Shown piece after piece: positions 787 through 41,028 of a stretch of DNA of 43,289 nucleotides. Within the stretch, counting starts at the first letter, position 1. Each line of letters begins with the position of its first letter. The notes below the pieces were generated by a model. That model saw only the letters and a program-made list of their open reading frames with translations. It did not search any database and was not told where the DNA came from. The DNA is from Chloroflexota bacterium. Its GTDB lineage: Bacteria > Chloroflexota > UBA11872 > VXOZ01. The position numbers and the translations under genes were made by a program. The stretch lies in assembly GCA_012270555.1 (NCBI GenBank), contig JAAXIC010000037.1, positions 1 through 43,289 on the forward strand, in the 5' to 3' direction.

Positions 787-1221
787 GGCATCGCTCCGCT
801 TTCACTGACTGCTCCTATTGTAGTGCCCTTATGCGGCCGGGGTGCGAACAAGCATCAGCATTCCGCATTTCTCTCACACAAATCCCCAAACCTTGCGCCA
901 CCGCTCAGCACAAGCCCGCAATTCCGGTAGCGCAGGCCCTTCGACAGAGCCTGTGCTGAGCCTGCCGCAGTGCTCAGCACACGTTTGCAACCCCGTATCG
1001 TGTCGATACGCTGTATCGAGTACGGGGCAGGCTCTGCGTTCTGCTCACTCCCTGTAAAGAATACATCTTCCGCCCGTCATAGCTACCCAAGAGCTTATCC
1101 ATAATGCTATGGTTGTACTATCTTGAAAGACAACCGCGCAGGACACGCACTCGCGCATTGTCGATTGCAGTCGGATTTACGCGATCAATCGCCTTTTGTG
1201 GTAGACGAGGAGTAGCAAGCA
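787..1221. other. intergenic region with composite repeat, no gene
   Basis: About 435 bases without a convincing gene. It holds the likely promoter of the lipoprotein gene near 818-830 on the minus strand, a composite dispersed repeat at 924-1038, and the leader of the first PhyH gene with its GAGGAG ribosome site near 1207. The short open frames here are made of repeat sequence. Confidence 0.6.
924..1038. repeat. composite dispersed repeat (CCGGTAGCGCAGG family plus 48-base hairpin unit)
   Basis: It begins with CCGGTAGCGCAGG and the arms GACAGAGCCTGTGCTGAG, then carries a hairpin unit at 991-1038 (CCCCGTA...TACGGGG, with inner TCGATA/TATCGA pairing). The 48-base unit is identical to 4979-5026. 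The CCGGTAGCGCAGG motif recurs at 5992, 8609 (inverted), 17882, 18088 (inverted) and 19109. Confidence 0.75.
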
Positions 1222-2190
1222 ATGGCCGGTCTCACGCAAGCGCAACTCGAACAGTTCGCGGAGCAGGGGTACGTTGTCGCAGAAAACGTGCTCGATCCGG
1301 CGGAAGACCTGGCGCCGGTGATGGCGGAATACGGCGACGTGCTGGACGGCATCGCCCGCGGCCTCCATGCCGAGGGCGTAATATCCTCCACCTATGCCGA
1401 ACTACCGTTCGACCAGCGTCTGATTCAGGTCTGCGACGAAAGCCGCCAGCTCTTTACCCAGCCGTTCGACATCTCACTCCCGCAGAGCGCCGAGCGCGCC
1501 GACGCGCCGATGCACACGGGCGCAGCCGTTTTCTATCTGCTCGTGAATGCGCGCCTGCTCGATTGCGTCGAGAGCATCATGGGGCCGGAAATCTCATCCA
1601 ATCCCATTCAGCACGTGCGCATGAAATTGCCGACCCAAGTGAGACACCCGGAGGGGCGAAACGGCCTTGCCGGTCCCACGCCCTGGCACCAGGACAACGG
1701 TGTGGTGGTGGAAGAGGCGGACGAAACCGAAATGCTTACCGTCTGGCTGCCCTTGAACGATGCCACCCTCGAAAATAGCTGCCTGAACGTGGTGCCGTAC
1801 TCGCACCGGGACGGCCTTGCCGTACACTGCCCGGGCACGGGCGGACTGAGCATTCCGGAGAGCCAGATGGACGAGGCGAAAGCCGTGCCGCTGCCTATGC
1901 AGGCCGGCAGCGTGCTCTTCATGCACCGCCGGACCATGCACTGCTCGTATGACAATAAGACCAAAGACGAGGTGCGCTGGAGTTTCGACCTGCGCTACCA
2001 GCCGAGCGGGCAACCCTCGGGCCGCCCGCTCTTCCCCGATTTCGTGGCCCGCAGCCGCGCCAACCCGGAGTCAGAAGTCCGCGACCCAGCGGCATGGGCA
2101 CAGCTCTGGGCAGACACGCGCGTTCGGCTGGCTGCTTCGGCTAAGCAGAAGTTCAACCGCTGGTCCGCCGACCATCCCGTATGTGCCTAG
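1222..2190 (+). CDS. phytanoyl-CoA dioxygenase (PhyH) family protein, copy 1
   Basis: A 322-residue Fe(II)/2-oxoglutarate-dependent oxygenase of the PhyH family, which hydroxylate CoA esters and many small metabolites; the substrate is unknown. The iron-binding H-x-D is in PWHQDNG (His156, Asp158). The distal His is in the MHxRTMHCSYDN stretch (His235 or His240). The 2-oxoglutarate-binding Arg is probably Arg252 in RWSFDLRY. The double-stranded beta-helix core spans roughly residues 130-260. Start: ATG with GAGGAG 10 bases upstream. It is followed by a close paralogue in the same orientation after 341 bases. Cytoplasmic, with no signal peptide. Family is confident, reaction is not. Confidence 0.88.
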   Translation: MAGLTQAQLEQFAEQGYVVAENVLDPAEDLAPVMAEYGDVLDGIARGLHAEGVISSTYAELPFDQRLIQVCDESRQLFTQPFDISLPQSAERADAPMHTGAAVFYLLVNARLLDCVESIMGPEISSNPIQHVRMKLPTQVRHPEGRNGLAGPTPWHQDNGVVVEEADETEMLTVWLPLNDATLENSCLNVVPYSHRDGLAVHCPGTGGLSIPESQMDEAKAVPLPMQAGSVLFMHRRTMHCSYDNKTKDEVRWSFDLRYQPSGQPSGRPLFPDFVARSRANPESEVRDPAAWAQLWADTRVRLAASAKQKFNRWSADHPVCA

Positions 2191-2531
2191 GCTGATTGAA
2201 TGCCGTGGCTTACTTCTGCACAATGAATTCTGTGCGTTCGAGACTTGGGCGTTACGTGTAGGCGCTCCTCTGCTTCGAAGAAGGACTGGGTAAGTCCTGA
2301 AGAACGGTTCTCGCTTTCGCGGGAATGACGGATAGGATTTCGTCTTTCCAAATCTGTAGCACGGAGGCTTGTCCCCCGCTCCCAGCTATCCCTTGGGGGC
2401 TTGCCTTGTGTGCTCTAGATGTATTATTTTGATACAGGACGGTGATTAAAAAGGCAAGAGCGTTGAACGTAGGCATCAACAGCAACTGCACATACATACG
2501 GTTCGCATGTGAACTCTAGGAGCAGCAAGAA
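2191..2531. other. intergenic region between PhyH paralogues
   Basis: 341 bases with no gene. It contains a half copy of the TTTCGCGGGAATGACGG repeat (2309-2332) and a GGAGGCTTGTCCCCCGC stretch near 2363, related to the palindrome at 9571. The AT-rich part at 2410-2450 may carry a promoter for the second PhyH gene. Confidence 0.55.
2309..2332. repeat. dispersed repeat, CGCGGGAATGACGG family (half copy)
   Basis: TCTCGCTTTCGCGGGAATGACGGA matches the right arm of the full hairpin at 28148-28174 and the copy inside the DUF2298 gene at 31292-31337. Confidence 0.6.
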
Positions 2532-3503
2532 ATGGCCGGCCTGACGCAAGCGCAACTCGATCAACTCAGTGAACAGGGGTACGTGGTCGTGGAAAACGTC
2601 CTCGATCCCGAGGAAGACCTGGCGCCGGTGATGGCGGAATACGGCGAGGTGTTGGACGGCATCGCCCACGATCTCTTCGCGGAGGGCATACTCTCATCGG
2701 CCTACGCCGATCTGCCGTTCGACCAACGCCTCATTCAGGTGTGCGATGAGAGCGGCCAGATTTTCGCCCAGCCTTTCGATATCTCACTGCCTCAAAAGTC
2801 CGAGGGGGCCGATGCGCCCATGCACACCGGGCCGGCCGTCTTCAATCTGCTTACTAACCCGCGCTTGCTCGACTGCGCCGAGAGCGTGGTTGGGCCTGAA
2901 ATCCTCTCCAACCCCGTGCAGCACGTCCGCATGAAGCTGCCGCGGCACGTCGTCCACGTGGAGAATCCGAGTAATCTTTCCGTGGCCGTGCCCTGGCACC
3001 AGGACAACGGCGTGGTGGTGGAAGAGGCCGACGAGACCGAAATGCTCACGGTATGGCTGCCCTTGAACGACGCCACCATCGAGAATAGCTGCATGTACGC
3101 CGTGCCCTACTCCCACCGCGAAGAGGAACTCGCGGTACACTGCCCGGGCGTCGGCGGTGTCTGGATTCCGGAAAAGCTGATTGACATAGATAACGCCATT
3201 CCCCTGCCCATGAAAGCCGGCAGCATCTTGCTCATGCACCGCAAGACCATGCATTGCTCTTACGACAACAAGACCAAGGACCAGGTGCGCTGGAGTTTCG
3301 ACCTGCGCTACCAGCCTATCGGCCAGCCCACCGGCCGCCCGGTTTTCCCGGATTTCGTGGCACGCAGTCGCGCCAATCCTGAATCGGAACTGCGCGACGC
3401 CGGCACGTGGACCCAAATGTGGGAAGACGCTCGCCCGAAACTGGCCGCTTCCACCACCAAGAACTTCAACCGCTGGTCCGCCGACCATCCGGTGTGCGCT
3501 TGA
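2532..3503 (+). CDS. phytanoyl-CoA dioxygenase (PhyH) family protein, copy 2
   Basis: A 323-residue paralogue of the preceding gene, collinear over its whole length. Both begin MAGLTQAQL and end FNRWSADHPVCA. Iron ligands are conserved: His156 and Asp158 in PWHQDNG and a distal His near residue 241 in HCSYDNKTKD. Differences cluster around residues 140-155 and 195-220, which flank the active site in this fold, so the two may act on different substrates. Start: ATG preceded by CTAGGAGCAGCAAGA. The pair is a tandem duplication that has diverged. It is followed by an acid-sugar dehydratase in the same direction. Confidence 0.88.
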   Translation: MAGLTQAQLDQLSEQGYVVVENVLDPEEDLAPVMAEYGEVLDGIAHDLFAEGILSSAYADLPFDQRLIQVCDESGQIFAQPFDISLPQKSEGADAPMHTGPAVFNLLTNPRLLDCAESVVGPEILSNPVQHVRMKLPRHVVHVENPSNLSVAVPWHQDNGVVVEEADETEMLTVWLPLNDATIENSCMYAVPYSHREEELAVHCPGVGGVWIPEKLIDIDNAIPLPMKAGSILLMHRKTMHCSYDNKTKDQVRWSFDLRYQPIGQPTGRPVFPDFVARSRANPESELRDAGTWTQMWEDARPKLAASTTKNFNRWSADHPVCA

Positions 3504-4978: not shown

Positions 4979-5026
4979 CCCCGTATCGTGTCGATACGCT
5001 GTATCGAGTACGGGGCAGGCTCTGCG
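4979..5026. repeat. 48-base hairpin repeat, identical to 991-1038
   Basis: CCCCGTA and TACGGGG form the outer arms and TCGATA/TATCGA the inner arms, followed by GGCAGGCTCTGCG. By eye it matches 991-1038 base for base. It lies between the convergent dehydratase and SDR genes. Confidence 0.8.
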
Positions 5027-5812: not shown

Positions 5813-5991
5813 GGAAACTTCCTTCCGTAAGAATTCGCGCCTGCTTTACGTGTAAGCATGTCCACTCCGCTACAGCCCTAATTCATTATCTATGCGCCCA
5901 CTATTGTAACGGAGGCGCGCATGTCGCTCCCAATGCTCTCGCGCCACAACCAGCGGCCAAAGACATGCTTTGCCACATGTCCTCCACCGAT

Positions 5992-15880: not shown

Positions 15881-17809
15881 GAGAGAAACCACAAGACCTA
15901 CCACGTTGTTACGCGGCAACTGCGCGCGCATTGGCACCTCATCGCAGGTATCGTCGTGCTTGTCATCGTGAGCACCGGCGTGAGCCTTATCTCACCCTTG
16001 CTTCTCAAGCGCCTCTTTGATGAGGCAATTCCCGCCGGCGACGTCGCGCTGATCGTGCCACTCCTCGTAGGGATAGTTGTTTTTCCGTTTATTACGATGG
16101 CGCTTGGGGCGGTGCAGAACTATCTCCGCGCCAGCATTGGTGAAGCGGTCTCCCAATCGCTCCGGCAGGCGCTCTTTAATCACATGCTCTATGTAAGGCT
16201 GCGTGACCTGGAGCGGGTCGTGAGCGGTCGCATCATCCATACGATCCGAAAGGTGTGTGGTGAGGTTGGCGAAGTATACGTGACCAATCAGCTTTTGCCC
16301 GTGTTCACGAACACCGTGCTCCTGCTTGGCACGTTGGGCGTGATGTTCTTTCTCAATGGCCGCTTATCGTTGGTGAGTTTGGCGATACTTCCACTTGCGT
16401 ACCTCATAGTTCGACGCATGCAGAACTACGCAGAAGTGCTCGACCGGGAGTTCTACCTGAATAGAGAACGCGGCGCGAACTATCTGCAAGAGGTTATCTC
16501 CGGTATACGCACCGTGCGCGCCCACACCGCCGCGCCCTATGAAGCGGCGCGCTGGCACGAGTGGATACAGTCCGACTGGCGTTTGAAGGCAAAGACCATT
16601 ACCTTCCACAACCTCGTGCGCGTGTTGCCAATGGACCTGATCCAGAACATCGGGATCGGGCTTGTGTACGGCTATGGCGCATACGAGGTCATAAACGGTC
16701 GGCTGAGCATCGGAGGCTTGGTGGCGTTTATCCTCTATGTGCCGCGCGCGTACTTTGCGCTGGAAGCCATCCTCGACGGTCACATCAGCACCGGCCAGGC
16801 GAAGGCCGCTGCCGAACGCATCGACTCTCTGCTAGCCCTGCCGTGCGAGGAGACTCCACCCGGCGCACAGGATGCCGTTCGCGATTTGGCAGCTAAGGCG
16901 GAACCGGAGGGGCAGACTATTGCTGACAGCATAGGGGATATTGGCGATGTAGAGTCTCCGCTGGATAAAAGCGCCGTAGCTTCCGTTCGTGCTGAGCACT
17001 TCGACAAGCTCAGCACAGGCCCTGTCGAAGTACGAACGGAAGCGGAAAAAGGCGAGACGATGCATACCTCGGCCATGCCAAGCGGTGCTGCCATCGAATT
17101 CTCCAACGTCTCATTCGACTACGGCCGCGAGGGCTTCGGCCTGGAGGACGTTTCTTTTCAGATCGAGCCCGGCGCGTTCATTGGCGTCGTGGGGCCGAGC
17201 GGCGGCGGTAAGAGCACGATCATCGATCTGCTGCTCCGCTTCTACGAACCCCGCTCCGGCGCAATCCGCGTGGATGGCACAAACGTAGAGAAGTTGCCGC
17301 TGCCGCACCTGCGCGGGATGATCGGGCTCGTGCCACAGGATGTCTTTCTCTGGAACGACAGCATCTACGCCAATCTCGTCTACCCGTCTCGTGATGTGTC
17401 ACGCGAGAGCGTCGTCAATGCAGCCAAGGCCGCGCAACTCCACGACTTTGTGGCGTCGCTGCCGGATGGCTACGACACGCACGTCGGCGAGCGCGGTCTG
17501 GCCCTCTCCGGCGGCGAACGCCAGCGCCTCGCGCTCTGCCGGGCAATCCTGGAACAACCCCAGATACTATTATTGGACGAAGCCACATCCGCCCTGGACG
17601 CGCTCACCGACCAAAAGGTGCGCGCCGCCCTGGAGACGGCGCGGCGCGGTCGGACCACCCTCGTTGTGGCGCACCGGCTCGTAACCGTGATGCACGCCGA
17701 CACAATCCTGGTCCTCGATGAAGGCAAGCTGGTCCAAGAGGGCGCGCCGCAAACATTGCTCGCACAGCCGGGCCTTTTCCAAGACCTCTACGAGGCACAG
17801 CGTTTGTAA
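15878..17809 (+). CDS. ABC exporter, fused permease and ATPase (MsbA/type IV fold)
   Basis: A half-transporter of about 643 residues if it starts at ATC 15878, or 617 from the first canonical start, GTG 15956. The longer form restores the cytosolic entry to TM1 (TRQLRAHWHLIAGIVVLV), which the GTG start would cut. Six TM helices span roughly 15-320. The ATPase has Walker A GPSGGGKS (about 438-445), signature LSGGERQRLA (about 543) and Walker B LLLDEATSALD (about 564), plus an H-loop in VVAHRL. It probably works as a homodimer; substrate unknown. The TMD-NBD linker is unusually long and includes translated repeat sequence at 16985-17038. Confidence 0.88.
   Translation: MERNHKTYHVVTRQLRAHWHLIAGIVVLVIVSTGVSLISPLLLKRLFDEAIPAGDVALIVPLLVGIVVFPFITMALGAVQNYLRASIGEAVSQSLRQALFNHMLYVRLRDLERVVSGRIIHTIRKVCGEVGEVYVTNQLLPVFTNTVLLLGTLGVMFFLNGRLSLVSLAILPLAYLIVRRMQNYAEVLDREFYLNRERGANYLQEVISGIRTVRAHTAAPYEAARWHEWIQSDWRLKAKTITFHNLVRVLPMDLIQNIGIGLVYGYGAYEVINGRLSIGGLVAFILYVPRAYFALEAILDGHISTGQAKAAAERIDSLLALPCEETPPGAQDAVRDLAAKAEPEGQTIADSIGDIGDVESPLDKSAVASVRAEHFDKLSTGPVEVRTEAEKGETMHTSAMPSGAAIEFSNVSFDYGREGFGLEDVSFQIEPGAFIGVVGPSGGGKSTIIDLLLRFYEPRSGAIRVDGTNVEKLPLPHLRGMIGLVPQDVFLWNDSIYANLVYPSRDVSRESVVNAAKAAQLHDFVASLPDGYDTHVGERGLALSGGERQRLALCRAILEQPQILLLDEATSALDALTDQKVRAALETARRGRTTLVVAHRLVTVMHADTILVLDEGKLVQEGAPQTLLAQPGLFQDLYEAQRL
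16985..17038. repeat. dispersed hairpin repeat inside the ABC exporter gene
   Basis: TTCGT...ACGAA outer arms, GTGCTGAGC/GCTCAGCAC inner arms, and a CTTCGACA/TGTCGAAG pair. Its parts match the intergenic repeats at 924-990 and 18040-18075. It is read in frame as about 18 residues of linker. Confidence 0.65.
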
Positions 17810-28065: not shown

Positions 28066-28147
28066 AGAATTGCGGAAGTCTAAGCGCAGCGTGGGGGATT
28101 GTTCCCAGCTCTAATCGAGAATGCTCTTGACGTGAGAAAGAAAAGAT

Positions 28148-28174
28148 GGATTCCCGCGTGCGCGGGAATGACGG
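28148..28174. repeat. dispersed hairpin repeat GGATTCCCGCG/CGCGGGAATGACGG
   Basis: ATTCCCGCG-TG-CGCGGGAAT, 9-bp perfect arms, then GACGG. A longer form lies inside the DUF2298 gene at 31292-31337, and a half copy is at 2309-2332. Confidence 0.7.
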
Positions 28175-28250: not shown

Positions 28251-31200
28251 TTAGGGCTGCTCTACACGGTATATCGTCACCCGCTCGTTGCGGTAGACGG
28301 GCGTGATCCCGAGGTCGCCCATTAGCTCGAATTTTTGCAGGCCGGGTCCCTGGTAGTAGGCGCGTTCTAGGTCTCCCAGGTAGATGTAGTCCACGTTGTA
28401 TTGCCGCAGGAGCCTCAGAGCCAGATCAATATCTGCGGTCTCGTAGATCGTTTGGATATCCACTTTGCGCTGCTCAATCATGGGGCGGTACTCCCAGCGT
28501 TGAAGCCACTGATGGGAATCCCAGCCCAGCACGGTGGGCAGGCCAGTGTGGATGGCGACGCGGGCGCCCCAGCGGAAATACGGGATCGTCGCTTCCAGCA
28601 TTGTCGGCGTGCCTTCAATGTTGTCTTGGAGCCAGCGGATCGCCTCCAGGTCCCACTTGAGCGGGATTTCGCGGTCCTGGTCGACGATCACGGCCTGTTC
28701 CATGAACGCCGCGCCGTCCAACGTGACGAGTCCCGGCGCCAGCCGCTGTTCGGCGCGGTCGGGTATCGCCGAGAGCGGGTAGAGGAGCGCAAGCAGGACG
28801 AGCAGCGTACCTACAGGCAATACCGTGCGCCGCAAACGCACCTGCTGCCATAGGTACGGCAGGGAGACGGCAGCCACCAAGGCCAGCAGATTCCAGGCTT
28901 GGAGGTAGAACTTGAAGATGGTGTTCATGCGCCCCACGTCGCCGTCGATGGCGAAAAACTCGGGGAAGATTCCCAGCAGCAGCGCAAGCGCGACCATGCC
29001 GGCGAGCAGCCGCGTGGGTAGCGGCGCTTGGGGACGCAGCGCCACCAGCAGCGCCAATCCAATACCAATCTGAAGCATGAGCACGATGGGCCGCTGCCAC
29101 AGGACGCTGGCAAGCACCAGTTGCATTACGACCAGGACTCCTAAGAGGCGGATGTCATAGGCAGTGCGTGATCGAAAGAGCTCCCGCGCCAGGAAAACAC
29201 CCACAAAGAAGAGCGGTACCCCATGGATCACGAGGTACTGCCAGAGCGGCGTTTGGTCGTCTATGCCGCGCGCGCCAAAGAAGAAGGACTGGTAGTGGTC
29301 TATGTAGGGGCCAAAGGCGATGCGTCCGACGATGTACAGCCCGATTGCCGCTATCCCCAGGCGCGCCCATGCCGGTATCTCGAGGCGCATAAGGCCGTGG
29401 CGCTCCACGAGAATTAAAGCCCCGCCCAAGAGCAAGGCGTACGTGGGATAGTCCCACGTATTGGCGGTGCGCAGGAAACCCAGCACAAAGCCGGCAAGCA
29501 ACAAGAGCGGCAGCGTGGGAAAACGTAGCAGCGGACGCAACCACACGAAAAGTGTCGGGGTGGAGTCGTCCACCCTTTCGATGGCGTTGCGTCGATAGCT
29601 CAAAACAAACGCCAAGGCGAGCACCGGGACAACCAGGGTAAAGGGCAATGCCAACACATGGGGATGGAGATCGCCGTAGAGAAAGCTGAAGAAGGGGAAC
29701 TCGTGGATAGCGCCCTCGATCAAGCGCGTGCTGTGCCAGTAATCGAAACCCGGCGGCGGTTCTCCCCGCAGGATATTACCGAGGGTTTGTCCGAACCAAG
29801 CGCCACCGGCGGGCAAGCGATCGGGGACCGCATCTGCCGTCAACTGCAAGAACCACTGCATGGCGGCATCTAAGTTGCCGATCACCGCCACGAGGACAAT
29901 TCCGCCAAGTCCTGCCAGCATCCGCATGTTGCGCGTCGATTTGCGCCAAAACGTGCTCCCAAACGTGTAGACATTCGCCGCGAGCAAGGCGGCTACCAGC
30001 GGCAGCACCAAGTTGTATGCCACCGACGGCACGATACCGAGCAGGCGAATCAGCGTAGCGAACACCTGATGCCCCATGTAGTAGTAGTTGATGTAGCCAC
30101 CCGCAAACCACGGGTCGAACGGCGGATACTGGACAGCCTTGATGAGCGCGTTCATGTGGGCAAAATCCATCGGTTTCTCGCCGCCGTAGTAGGGGTGCCA
30201 GAGATCGGGATTCGTCAGGCGCACCCACAAGAAGAAGAGAAAGCACACGGTGAAGACCGTCTCACTGAGTATGAGTTCCGATCGCCGCTGCTTCAGAAAG
30301 TCCACAAATCGCCGCCACGTGCGGGTAAGCACGAAGGCGCTGGTGAGACCAACCAGCGCGATGGCAAGCCACGTAGTGGCGCGACCGGCCGCCAGCACAC
30401 CGGTACTCGCCAACAACCAGGGAATGTACGCGATGAAGAGAAGGCCGATGCTCTTTGCCAGCAGATAGCCGTGGTCGGGCACCATAGGCAGAATGCGCCA
30501 CAGCAGCGGCCACGTGATCCAGCCGAGCAATAGAATGGCGAGCCACCAGACCAGCCACGGCACAGCGTTGACGACACTGTTGCGGTTGAAGTGCGCCGAC
30601 CACGAGCCACTATCCTTGAGACTCTCTTGCTGCGCCACAGTGAGCAAGAGACCGTTGTAGGTCAGTTGCTTCGGCGTTAGCGTCTGGGGCAGCGTTGTCA
30701 GGTGCGGTTCTAGCAGCGCACGCACGCGCTCAGGACTATAGTCGGCGGTCTTCACGAAGAGATGTACGGTCGGGTGATCGAAGACGATGAATTGCTCTTC
30801 CGCCTGGCTGTCGTCAATCTCCCAACCGAGGAGGTGGGGAAAGTGAGTAAATGTGCGCAGCGGCGCGAAACCAAGCGCACCCGCAAAGAGGTGACGGTAA
30901 TACTCGGACGTCATTGGGTAACGGGCGGGAAGTTGCCGGATCACACCGTGGGTGCGGCTGCTGCTGACGACGATGTAGTCGGCCTGCGTGAGCGCCTGAA
31001 CCATCTCTTCCAGCTTGCCGGGCGTATCGGCGCCGAAGACAGGAAGCTGCACGTACTGGTAGCGGTCAGGGGTGTGGACGTGCCCCGGTAATCGCAGCGG
31101 CAGCGCGTCATCCCAGAGTTCTGCCGTCAGCACGGCGCCGGCCGGGACGTTTTGGTAGATCCACTCGCTTGCGCGCACGCGGGCTACCGGCTCCGTGTAG

Positions 31201-32630
31201 ATGCGCGTGTAGGCAAAGGCCCACGCACACGTGCTTAGCAGCACGAGGGCGGCGAGACCCGGCCCGGCATAGGGCAGCCAGCGTCGATGAGATGGATTCC
31301 GCGCCCCTTGCGGGGGCGAGCTTTCGCGGGAATGACGTGACTGTTGTCCAATGCGCTGCAGCCAGGCGAAGGCATCCCCTTTGTAGAGTTGATACGCCAA
31401 CCAACAGAGGAAAACGCCGCCAAGCACGGCGAAGGCAGGATAGATAGGCAGGAAGTAGCGACCGGGCTTGGCGAATTGGAGGGCTTGATAGCCGTATAGG
31501 GCGAGCACCCAGGTGACTACCGGCGCGAAATCCAGCTTGTTGTGACGCACCAGGCGCCAGATGCCCCAAAGCAGGCCCAGCCACGCTACACCTGCCAGCG
31601 CCCAGCCCATCTCCCAGCGAAACATCTGTTCGAGCGGAAACAAAGCATAGTTGGCCGTGGCCCAACTGTAGGCAGGAGGAAAGTCCACGGCACCCCCGGC
31701 CAGATAGCGCAGGTTTTCAATGTCCTCCGTGTAGCGTGGGTTGAGCCGGGGGTCCCACGGGGAAGCGGACGCAAAGACGTACGGCAAGCAGAGGCGGAGC
31801 GTAGCATAGACCAGCGCTGCACCCATAATCAGGTGGCCGCCGAGACGCAGGAGCAGACGGCCGGTGACGGCCACGTCCGGCGGTTGCGTCATTCGCCAGG
31901 CGCGCAGCCAGAACGCGACACCGATAGGCAGAGCCAGTGTCGCTACACCCAGCTTGCTGGCCAGGGCGAGACCGGCAACGATGCTTACTCCAACGAGATC
32001 GTACCAGCGGCCCTCTTCCTGCCAGCGGAGTGCCCACCAAAGCGCCAGTGTGGCAAAGAACGTCACCCAGGTGTCGGTCGTGTAGAAGTGCGCCTGCTGG
32101 ATCGCCTGCACCGCGCACGCGTAGAGAGCGGCGGCGAATGCGCCACCCCAGCGGCCGCTCAAGCGGCGCGCTATGAGGAAGACGAGCAGAATTGTCAGCG
32201 TATCCAGCGAGGCCGTCAGAAAGCGGCCGACGAGGTGAATGCCGTCGTAGGCATCTTTGTCGACGATGCCGGCCGCAGCCTTGGTGATGAAGACCGGCAG
32301 CGTGCCGTAGACGAAGGAGCCGATGCCCTGGTTGTACGGATTGAGCGGCGAGGTCTCTGTATCGAAGTACTGCGAAAGAGAATCCGGCCACTGAATCTGC
32401 GCCGTCGTTATGGTGATATGCCGCTCGTCGGGATGGAGATGGGTACTGGAATCCCAGTCCAGGCCCGTGAAGCGAAACCACGTGCCGACGAGCAACGCCA
32501 GTCCGAGTAGCAGCCACGGCCCATGTTTGCGAATAGAAGCGAGGCTCAAGAGCGACGCATACTGCTCCCTTGTCAGACCGGAGGGCTCTTGAGCGTCCGT
32601 CGTAGCTTCGGAAGCGTCGGGAAGACTCAT
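28251..32630 (-). CDS. giant membrane protein: GT39-like glycosyltransferase fused to DUF2298 (Chlor_Arch_YYY)
   Basis: A 1459-residue polytopic membrane protein in two halves. Residues 1-700 resemble GT-C/GT39 (PMT-type) glycosyltransferases: after TM1 comes LDWDSSTHLHPDERH, with the acidic Asp68/Glu69 expected in the first outer loop. Residues 800-1459 are a DUF2298 domain, with GGEKPMDFAHMNAL and the naming motif YINYYYMGH near 846-852. Many TM helices follow. It is likely to move sugars from polyprenyl-linked donors to an outer acceptor. Its ATG overlaps the stop of the upstream GT4 by 4 bases, so the two are translationally coupled. A repeat unit is read through at residues 429-448. Confidence 0.85.
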   Translation of the reverse strand: MSLPDASEATTDAQEPSGLTREQYASLLSLASIRKHGPWLLLGLALLVGTWFRFTGLDWDSSTHLHPDERHITITTAQIQWPDSLSQYFDTETSPLNPYNQGIGSFVYGTLPVFITKAAAGIVDKDAYDGIHLVGRFLTASLDTLTILLVFLIARRLSGRWGGAFAAALYACAVQAIQQAHFYTTDTWVTFFATLALWWALRWQEEGRWYDLVGVSIVAGLALASKLGVATLALPIGVAFWLRAWRMTQPPDVAVTGRLLLRLGGHLIMGAALVYATLRLCLPYVFASASPWDPRLNPRYTEDIENLRYLAGGAVDFPPAYSWATANYALFPLEQMFRWEMGWALAGVAWLGLLWGIWRLVRHNKLDFAPVVTWVLALYGYQALQFAKPGRYFLPIYPAFAVLGGVFLCWLAYQLYKGDAFAWLQRIGQQSRHSRESSPPQGARNPSHRRWLPYAGPGLAALVLLSTCAWAFAYTRIYTEPVARVRASEWIYQNVPAGAVLTAELWDDALPLRLPGHVHTPDRYQYVQLPVFGADTPGKLEEMVQALTQADYIVVSSSRTHGVIRQLPARYPMTSEYYRHLFAGALGFAPLRTFTHFPHLLGWEIDDSQAEEQFIVFDHPTVHLFVKTADYSPERVRALLEPHLTTLPQTLTPKQLTYNGLLLTVAQQESLKDSGSWSAHFNRNSVVNAVPWLVWWLAILLLGWITWPLLWRILPMVPDHGYLLAKSIGLLFIAYIPWLLASTGVLAAGRATTWLAIALVGLTSAFVLTRTWRRFVDFLKQRRSELILSETVFTVCFLFFLWVRLTNPDLWHPYYGGEKPMDFAHMNALIKAVQYPPFDPWFAGGYINYYYMGHQVFATLIRLLGIVPSVAYNLVLPLVAALLAANVYTFGSTFWRKSTRNMRMLAGLGGIVLVAVIGNLDAAMQWFLQLTADAVPDRLPAGGAWFGQTLGNILRGEPPPGFDYWHSTRLIEGAIHEFPFFSFLYGDLHPHVLALPFTLVVPVLALAFVLSYRRNAIERVDDSTPTLFVWLRPLLRFPTLPLLLLAGFVLGFLRTANTWDYPTYALLLGGALILVERHGLMRLEIPAWARLGIAAIGLYIVGRIAFGPYIDHYQSFFFGARGIDDQTPLWQYLVIHGVPLFFVGVFLARELFRSRTAYDIRLLGVLVVMQLVLASVLWQRPIVLMLQIGIGLALLVALRPQAPLPTRLLAGMVALALLLGIFPEFFAIDGDVGRMNTIFKFYLQAWNLLALVAAVSLPYLWQQVRLRRTVLPVGTLLVLLALLYPLSAIPDRAEQRLAPGLVTLDGAAFMEQAVIVDQDREIPLKWDLEAIRWLQDNIEGTPTMLEATIPYFRWGARVAIHTGLPTVLGWDSHQWLQRWEYRPMIEQRKVDIQTIYETADIDLALRLLRQYNVDYIYLGDLERAYYQGPGLQKFELMGDLGITPVYRNERVTIYRVEQP
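31292..31337. repeat. dispersed repeat inside the DUF2298 gene
   Basis: ATTCCGCG, then CCCCTTGCGGGGGCGAG, then TTTCGCGGGAATGACG: the long form of the 28148-28174 repeat. In the protein it gives the hydrophilic stretch RHSRESSPPQGARNPS between two TM segments, in frame. Confidence 0.7.
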
Positions 32631-39294: not shown

Positions 39295-39510
39295 CTAACT
39301 CGCGCCGGATTTGCCGAGGAAGACGTGGGTGAGGATGTCGGAGTCGCGGATGGCGTTGGGGGTGCCGGTGAAGACGATGCGGCCTTTGTCGAGGACGTAG
39401 GCGCGGTTGACGATGTCGAGCACGCCTTTGATGTTGTGCTCCACGATCATGATGGTCGTCTTGAGCTCATCGCTGATTTCGGAGACCTTTTCAAACACCT
39501 CTTTGACCAC
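39295..39510 (-). pseudogene. livF fragment, 3' end of a second copy
   Basis: The last 71 codons of a LivF-type ATPase, ending K-S-G-A-S and a stop. They match the C-terminus of the intact livF at 40219 with five differences in 71 residues by hand count. Similarity ends abruptly at 39511 on the 5' side, and at the stop codon on the 3' side. Walker A, signature and Walker B are absent, so it cannot be a functional ATPase. It is either the remnant of a diverged paralogue or of a partial duplication; accumulated silent changes suggest it is not very recent. Confidence 0.85.
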
Positions 39511-40218: not shown

Positions 40219-41028
40219 CTAGCTCGCGCCGGATTTGCCGAGGAAGACGTGCGTGAGGATGTCGGAGGAGCGGATGGCGTTGGGGGTGCCGGTGAAGACG
40301 ATGCGGCCTTTATCGAGGACGTAGGCGCGGTCGACGATGTCGAGCACGCCTTTGATGTTGTGCTCCACGATCATGATGGTCGTCTTGAGTTGCTCGCTGA
40401 TCTCGGAGACCTTGTCAAATACTTCCTTGACCACAATAGGCGCGAGGCCCAGAGTCGGTTCGTCGAGCAGGAGCACGTCGGGGGCGGCCATCAGGCCCCG
40501 GCCCAGGGCGAGCATCTGTTGCTGGCCGCCGGACATTGCGCTGGCGAGGTCGCCGCGTTTGCTCTGGAGGATGGGGAAGATGCGCATCACGCCCTCGAGG
40601 CGGCGTTGTTTTTCCGCTTTGTCCTTCAGGTGGAGGCAGCCCATCTCCAGGTTCTCCTCGATGGTAAGGTGCGTGAAGACGCGCCTACCCTGCGGCACGA
40701 ACGCGATGCCTTCCTTCACTATCTCGTGGGTAGCGGCGGCCAGCGGGGCTTTCCGCCAAAAGACCTCTCCGGCGACAACGGGCGCCAGCCCCATGATGGC
40801 CTTGAGCACTGTGGACTTGCCGGCGCCGTTGGGACCCATCACGGCCACCACCTCGCCGCGGCGCACGCCCAGCGAGACGTCATTCAGCGCGATTACGGCT
40901 CCGTAGTGCACGGAGATGCCGGCAAGCTCGAGGATCGGCCCGTCGTGGACGGCCTGCCCTTGAGTGTCGTCACCAGAGGGAGGCTGGTTGGGGTCTTGCG
41001 TTCCGCTTGTCTCTTCCGGTGTGTTCAT
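40219..41028 (-). CDS. livF: branched-chain amino acid ABC transporter, ATP-binding protein LivF-like
   Basis: A 269-residue ABC ATPase. Walker A GPNGAGKST, signature MSGGQQQMLALGRGLM, Walker B VLLLDEPTLGL and the H-loop in MIVEHN are intact. The C-terminal IVFTGTPNAIRSSDILTHVFLG is typical of LivF. With LivG it energises import through LivH/LivM. An acidic, hydrophilic stretch of about 30 residues precedes the ABC domain. Start: ATG 41028 with AGAG 5 bases upstream; GTG 41034 has none. It is separated from livG by 331 bases with two REP-like palindromes, so it may have its own expression level. Confidence 0.93.
   Translation of the reverse strand: MNTPEETSGTQDPNQPPSGDDTQGQAVHDGPILELAGISVHYGAVIALNDVSLGVRRGEVVAVMGPNGAGKSTVLKAIMGLAPVVAGEVFWRKAPLAAATHEIVKEGIAFVPQGRRVFTHLTIEENLEMGCLHLKDKAEKQRRLEGVMRIFPILQSKRGDLASAMSGGQQQMLALGRGLMAAPDVLLLDEPTLGLAPIVVKEVFDKVSEISEQLKTTIMIVEHNIKGVLDIVDRAYVLDKGRIVFTGTPNAIRSSDILTHVFLGKSGAS

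What the first reader, a model, noticed from the sequence alone, without database searches (positions are those of the whole stretch)
31292..31337. A second repeat family translated inside the DUF2298 protein
The ATTCCCGC...GCGGGAATGACG element, present intergenically at 28148-28174 and 2309-2332, is read in frame as about 16-20 hydrophilic residues in a loop between TM helices. Two different repeat families tolerated inside genes in one window suggest ongoing mobility and a protein-loop filter.
Basis: partly seen in the sequence, partly recalled or inferred. Interest (0 to 1): 0.5.

Follow-up and report, generated by a model that had tools for sequence, protein, structure and literature searches.

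The report
CGTC-type palindromic repeat in protein loop
A short palindromic DNA repeat, scattered through this bacterium's genome, sits in frame inside a membrane-protein gene and is read as a floppy loop; the repeat type and the habit are known from other bacteria, but here the same thing has happened in many conserved proteins of a whole genus.

Summary
At 31293-31337 a repeat lies in frame inside the DUF2298/PMT_2 gene (28251-32630, minus), read RHSRESSPPQGARNPS (residues 432-447). The genome has 59 two-armed copies (42 short, 17 long). The short form fits the published CGTC-1 REP definition (CGTC head, 8-bp stem, 4-nt loop, CCA tail; = Neisseria dRS3, Rickettsia RPE-6). The copy in the gene is a long form with a nested hairpin. 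AlphaFold2 puts it in a pLDDT<50 coil between helices.

It is not a fresh insertion: the closest relative (87% identical) has it, a third species keeps a decayed short form at the same codons (best of 1422 in-frame windows), two others have neither, and no target duplication is seen. In another genus of the class a different repeat sits in the same loop.

Beyond the window, six further conserved genes (MoeA, UvrA and others) carry CGTC REPs in frame at matching sites across the genus; the UvrA insert is 62-163 aa in five genomes, against 4 or fewer in 10 of 11 loci outside the genus. Known kind; new lineage, nested long form, unusually extensive.

The parts
31293..31337 (-). Long-form CGTC REP element read in frame (CGTC head at 31337-31334, CCA tail at 31295-31293; weaker conservation extends to about 31291)
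31302..31318 (-). Nested G+C-rich hairpin that distinguishes the long form from the short form (stems 31318-31313 and 31307-31302)
31290..31337 (-). Codons 432-447 of the host gene, RHSRESSPPQGARNPS; pLDDT below 50 over 429-439 and 441-445
28251..32630 (-). Host gene, 1459 aa: PMT_2 (residues 135-242) and DUF2298 (733-1249)
28147..28173 (-). Intergenic short-form copy, core ATTCCCGCGTGCGCGGGAAT
2309..2332 (-). Intergenic partial copy; only the right (CGTC-head) half matches well
16989..17030 (+). Copy of a different repeat family in frame (AEHFDKLSTGPVEV) in the linker of an ABC exporter gene 15956-17809

Best explanation
The feature is a long-form member of the CGTC-1 kind of repetitive palindrome (REP), a non-autonomous repeat. 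A short copy (about 31 nt; five of its six frames are open) most likely entered this gene before G000, G004 and G005 split, in a disordered loop before a transmembrane helix, where the protein tolerates extra residues. In the G000/G004 lineage the short form became the long form by gain of a nested hairpin, a net +18 nt that keeps the frame; in G005 the short form decayed. The peptide is most likely tolerated rather than needed. Shown: that the short form fits the family, in-frame reading, sharing with G004, the remnant in G005, the same short/long +18-nt alternation at orthologous sites in two other genes, low model confidence of the segment. Inferred: direction (short to long), the trans-acting machinery that spreads the repeat (unknown), neutrality of the peptide.
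For: 59 two-armed copies in the genome, 42 short and 17 long; short pattern in 6 of 6 genus genomes, 31-96 copies each, control 0. G004 carries the same long form at the same codons, 2 of 47 nt different. G005 has 20/30 nt and RVSHLSGNPL against RHSRESGNPS at the aligned codons, first of 1422 in-frame windows. Apart from the termini, this 6-aa step is the only indel among five orthologues. The same +18-nt alternation occurs in the HerA-like gene (long in G001, G004; short in G000, G003, G005) and in the Type ISP gene (long in G003, G005; short in G000, G004). AlphaFold2 coil. Short-form fold: 8-bp stem, 4-nt loop, z -4.0. Six-frame reading. Definition of CGTC-1 from PMC3733652.
Against: G003 and G002 show no convincing remnant (12/30 and 11/30; 50 and 101 of 1442 windows as good), so an origin in the genus ancestor is not shown. 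The equal loop length of G002, G003 and G005 is explained only if the first two have lost all resemblance. The long form folds weakly (z -1.3). No clean empty site was found for this gene. No mobilising enzyme was linked to the repeat.
Confidence: 0.82

Rival explanations
1. The long element entered once, only in the common ancestor of G000 and G004, replacing about 30 nt of an older loop; the resemblance in G005 is coincidence.
For: G000 and G004 share one diagnostic long form; G002 and G003 lack any convincing trace.
Against: G005's codons are the best of 1422 in-frame windows for the short form, and at the place fixed by the alignment. A 45-nt insert with a net gain of exactly 18 nt would need an exact compensating loss. 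The same 18-nt step occurs in two other genes.
Confidence: 0.12
2. The repeat-encoded peptide is selected for what it does in the protein (a functional linker), which is why it stays.
For: Only 3 of 5 open frames are used at 13 sites in 7 genes; (3/5)^13 = 0.0013 if sites are independent, 0.028 if only genes are. The UvrA loop keeps RHSRES plus MDSR units in 6 of 6 genus genomes.
Against: In this gene the element is not unusually conserved (224 of 1443 windows of 47 nt are as similar or more); G002 and G003 lack it; the peptides sit in many unrelated proteins; frame choice may only reflect which peptides are harmless.
Confidence: 0.12
3. The element acts as DNA or RNA (pausing, recombination, phage or IS target) and its translation is incidental.
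For: The short core fits the dRS3 pattern ATTCCC(N8)GGGAAT; one dRS3 subtype is the integration target of a Neisseria filamentous phage (PMC3898611), and copies in G015, G055 and G105 with inner bases GCCTGCGC fit that subtype.
Against: The copy here has only a 5-bp outer stem with a nested hairpin and does not fit dRS3. IS110-type PF02371 genes were found in 2 of 6 genus genomes and not in G000.
Confidence: 0.1
4. Assembly artefact of a metagenome bin.
For: All six genus genomes used here are in several contigs (9-490), the named ones are metagenome bins, and short repeats can mislead assembly.
Against: A separately deposited record (JAPPLM010000007.1, length and match as the G004 contig) has the same element in the same codons, and the frame is open through 1459 residues.
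Confidence: 0.02

Closest known systems
CGTC-1 REP family (Di Nocera et al. 2013, PMC3733652; abstract, passages and sections 6, 15, 17 part 1 read)
   Same: CGTC head, CCA tail; the short form has the 8-bp A/T-ended stem and 4-nt loop; tens of copies; intragenic copies known, uvrA among the targets in other bacteria; flexible loops proposed there as the reason for tolerance.
   Different: The copy here is a long form with a nested hairpin and a 5-bp outer stem. That paper lists CGTC repeats in five phyla, Chloroflexi not among them (it lists GTAG repeats there). Orthologous sites across a genus with short/long alternation are not described in the sections read.
Rickettsia palindromic elements (RPE; Ogata et al., known here through passages of PMC10969869 and PMC3733652)
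   Same: Palindromes inserted in frame in unrelated protein genes; RPE-6 is stated to be a CGTC-1 repeat.
   Different: The review gives about 150 bp for RPEs; here 27 or 45-46 nt (TGGATTCC to GACG). Different phylum.
Neisseria dRS3 (PMC3898611, passages read)
   Same: 20-bp ATTCCC(N8)GGGAAT with 6-bp terminal inverted repeats; the intergenic copy at 28150-28169 fits exactly.
   Different: The gene copy does not fit; dRS3 there is concentrated in intergenic arrays and one subtype is a phage target.
GTAG REPs with RAYT transposases
   Same: Also present in this genus: Y1_Tnp genes in 5 of 6 genomes; 3 of 11 such loci carry palindromes (GTAGGGGCAGGTTT..., GCGCAGGTT...) like the window's other repeat at 5991, 17880 and 19108.
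   Different: CGTC head, not GTAG; no full CGTC element in any of the 11 Y1_Tnp loci (one half copy in L085).

Membership tests
CGTC-1 REP | Unpaired CGTC at one end | tested here: met
   CGTC at 31337-31334, unpaired in both folds
CGTC-1 REP | 8-bp stem beginning with A/T pairs | tested here: not met
   Met by the short form of the family (8 bp), not by the copy in the gene (5-bp outer stem plus nested hairpin)
CGTC-1 REP | 4-nt loop | tested here: not met
   Met by the short form; the gene copy has a nested hairpin in its 3' arm
CGTC-1 REP | Short unpaired CCA tail | tested here: met
   CCA at 31295-31293
CGTC-1 REP | Many copies per genome | tested here: met
   59 two-armed copies
CGTC-1 REP | No dedicated transposase nearby | tested here: inconclusive
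   0 full copies in 11 Y1_Tnp loci; PF02371 absent from G000; other transposases not examined
dRS3 | ATTCCC(N8)GGGAAT | tested here: not met
   Fits the copy at 28150-28169, not the gene copy
Rickettsia palindromic element | In-frame insertion in unrelated protein genes | tested here: met
   Seven genes
Rickettsia palindromic element | Size of about 150 bp | tested here: not met
   27, 45 or 46 nt between TGGATTCC and GACG
MITE | Target-site duplication | tested here: not met
   3-nt or longer matches at the borders 5 of 59 against 4.84 by shuffling (offsets 2,0). Of 42 border offsets scanned, one exceeded z 2.5 (2 of 59 against 0.39)
GTAG REP / RAYT-mobilised | GTAG head | tested here: not met
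   Head is CGTC

The most novel reading that the evidence does not exclude
In this Chloroflexota genus CGTC palindromes act as standing raw material for protein loops: harmless reading frames are retained, nested hairpins switch loop length in frame-keeping steps of 18 nt, and loops of core enzymes (UvrA 62-163 aa, MoeA 63-160 aa) have been built up from several repeat families and kept through the genus, some perhaps now useful to the protein.
Probability: 0.25. Interest if true: 0.75.

Novelty: new variant of a known kind. Interest (0 to 1): 0.45.

Why it matters
In-frame palindromes in protein genes are best known from Rickettsia, an intracellular bacterium. Here the same class of repeat decorates conserved proteins across a genus of Chloroflexota, at orthologous sites, with visible stages (absent, short, long, decayed, multiplied). 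That offers a natural series to test whether such inserts are only tolerated or become functional, and a caution for annotation and structure prediction: the peptides RHSRES.., SVIPAKAGI.. and MDSR..GNDG in a protein can be a repeat, not a domain.

Tried and rejected
RAYT as the mover: Y1_Tnp genes exist in 5 of 6 genus genomes, but none of the 11 loci holds a full CGTC copy. IS110-type recombinase as the mover: PF02371 in G003 (1) and G005 (2) only. Target duplications: none convincing. The second repeat suspected at 31693-31720 of the same gene (repeat finder family D11) falls in codons for ENLRYLAGG, which the orthologues largely share: chance. A codon-usage classifier of coding against non-coding copies was weak (true frame best in 40 of 47 training windows), so the count of coding copies rests on orthologues and Pfam instead. 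Ten ORFs over repeat copies that I judged doubtful were scanned: 1 of 10 had a Pfam match, and that one has the repeat at its N-terminus; these ORFs hold the otherwise unused frames. The membrane-protein (FeS) short/long difference was left out of the alternation count because the copies do not align to one site. A search for the repeat peptides as strings found no paper.

Rows dropped before counts: of 70 CGGGAATGACG hits, 11 lacked a recognised left arm; by eye four of these look like real but divergent copies (L007 second site, L010, L015, window 2320), seven like chance. G001's MoeA and 3HCDH/ECH and G002's Type ISP contigs were too short to judge the site fully.

Full report
What is there. 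The window is contig C30 of a 3.18-Mb, 56-contig genome. The ORF 28251-32630 (minus, 1459 aa) has PMT_2 at residues 135-242 and DUF2298 at 733-1249. At 31293-31337 it contains TGGATTCCGCGCCCCTTGCGGGGGCGAGCTTTCGCGGGAATGACG, read on the gene strand as RHSRESSPPQGARNPS, residues 432-447.

The repeat family. CGGGAATGACG occurs 70 times in the genome, 2 times for the reversed control. All 70 sites were read. 59 have both arms; TGGATTCC to GACG measures 27 nt in 42, 46 nt in 9 and 45 nt in 8. Sequence conservation fades within a few bases outside these limits, and no target duplication is seen. The short form folds into an 8-bp stem with a 4-nt loop (-9.0 kcal/mol, z -4.0); the long form of this gene gives an outer 5-bp stem, a small inner hairpin and a nested G+C-rich hairpin (-9.7, z -1.3). 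The short pattern is in 6 of 6 genus genomes (31-96 copies, control 0) and in 15 of 151 genomes sampled from the phylum, patchily: all 4 of the own genus that were drawn, 6 of 6 of genus g2, G089, G093 and three single hits.

History of the copy in this gene. Orthologues were found in 5 of 6 genus genomes, the window's own included; G001, 69% complete, gave none. G004 (87% identical) has the same long form at the same codons; G002, G003 and G005 are exactly 6 aa shorter there, and apart from the termini this is the only indel in the alignment. In G005 the aligned codons are 20/30 identical to the short form, first of 1422 in-frame windows (mean 7.0, sd 2.3); G003 and G002 give 12/30 and 11/30, not remarkable. 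Between G000 and G004 the element differs at 2 of 47 positions, against a mean of 6.4 per window of that size, but 224 of 1443 windows are as similar or more. So the copy is inherited, not fresh, and not unusually conserved.

The spacer next door. Between this gene and the downstream dapA-like gene G000 has the short copy at 28147-28173 and G005 has a short copy in unlike flanks; G002 has the same neighbour and no CGTC copy there; G003 and G004 have other neighbours.

The loop. AlphaFold2 on residues 1-720 with 26 sequences (mean pLDDT 78.7) places 429-439 and 441-445 below 50, between helices 419-432 and 446-478. Of 41 genomes of the class searched, 39 matched; 30 loci were aligned. The loop varies from nearly nothing (for example L163-L166) to long and unrelated. 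In genus g5 of another family, both genomes searched (G089, G162) carry TPSPLMGEGRGEGD / TPSPLIGEGGGEGD, the translation of a CCCTCTCCC...GGAGAGGG palindrome, in the same loop. Genus-g2 genomes, which hold the CGTC repeat (10-80 short copies), have short loops without it (L163, L164, L168-L170).

Other genes. In G000 six more genuine genes carry the repeat in frame away from their N-terminus: MoeA, UvrA, a HerA-like ATPase (DUF87), 3HCDH/ECH, a Type ISP protein and a membrane protein with cysteine motifs but no Pfam match at E 0.001. Orthologues in the genus carry it at matching sites: UvrA 6 of 6 genomes; MoeA 5 of 5 that cover the site; HerA-like 5 of 6 (not G002); 3HCDH/ECH 6 of 6, G001 partial; the membrane protein 5 of 5 (G002 and G005 only with the divergent CATTCCGGC form); Type ISP 4 of 4 that cover it. 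The UvrA insert measures 83, 62, 65, 163 and 150 aa in G000, G001, G005, G004 and G003 (G002, which has many copies, was not measured by that script), built largely of these units and duplicated in G003 and G004. In 13 genomes outside the genus 11 loci were measured: 4 aa or fewer between the flanking alignments in 10, and 15 in one (L184) whose left alignment ended earlier. MoeA inserts are 63-160 aa. Short and long forms alternate at one site, always by 18 nt, in the HerA-like and Type ISP genes as in DUF2298. Over 13 sites in 7 genes only three frames occur (RHSRES/RHSGES, SVIPAKAGI, MDSR..GNDG); the hydrophobic WIPAFAGMT and the PSFPRKRES frames do not, p about 0.001 if sites are independent and 0.03 if only genes are. 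That count was made after looking at the data, and the seven genes were chosen by me as genuine.

Compared with what is known. PMC3733652 (abstract, passages, sections 6 and 15 and part 1 of 17 read) sorts REPs into GTAG and CGTC superfamilies. CGTC-1 has an 8-bp stem, 4-nt loop and CCA tail, equals Neisseria dRS3 and Rickettsia RPE-6, and CGTC repeats lack a dedicated transposase; REPs occur inside genes including uvrA in other bacteria, and the authors already suggest flexible loops as tolerant sites. It lists CGTC repeats in five phyla without Chloroflexi, and GTAG repeats in Chloroflexi. Here the short form meets the CGTC-1 definition; the copy in the gene meets head and tail but not stem and loop, and is best called a long variant. 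Searches for earlier reports showed none in this phylum; they cover open-licence papers only. RepRanger (PMC12306157, passages) counts REPs in three Chloroflexota species; nothing on intragenic copies was seen in the passages.

Judgement. The repeat and the habit are known; the lineage, the nested long form and the genus-wide decoration of core proteins at orthologous sites are what is new. How the repeat spreads remains unknown.

Noticed in passing
L048, L115-L118, L121 (UvrA genes of G000-G005): UvrA of all six genus genomes carries an insert built of CGTC-repeat peptides (62-163 aa in the five measured); relatives outside the genus have almost nothing there.
   Followed up: yes
L007, L100, L102-L104 (MoeA genes): A 63-160-aa loop before the VPVVGLPGNP motif is built of at least two repeat families (SVIPAKAGI.. 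and PSPWGEGQGEG..).
   Followed up: partly
L084, L085, L086: Y1_Tnp (RAYT-like) genes with nearby palindromes resembling the window's GTAG-type repeat at 5991, 17880 and 19108.
   Followed up: partly
L015, about 50-131: A CGTC element that seems to carry two nested hairpins in a row.
   Followed up: no
window 1208-3428: Two adjacent genes (1222-2190 and 2532-3503) are tandem paralogues, 77-85% alike in DNA, spacing about 1310.
   Followed up: no
window 991-1038 and 4979-5026: A perfect 48-nt direct repeat 4 kb apart.
   Followed up: no
window 39295-39510 and 40219-40434: A 216-nt direct repeat, 94% identical, 924 nt apart.
   Followed up: no
L066, 4218-4247; L009; L012: A repeat copy read as MDSRFHGNDG lies at or near the start of long ORFs (in L066 it supplies the ATG), which may mislead start-codon annotation.
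   Followed up: no
G015, G055, G105: Genus-g2 copies with core ATTCCCGCCTGCGCGGGAAT fit the dRS3 subtype reported as target of Neisseria phage Nf1 (PMC3898611).
   Followed up: no
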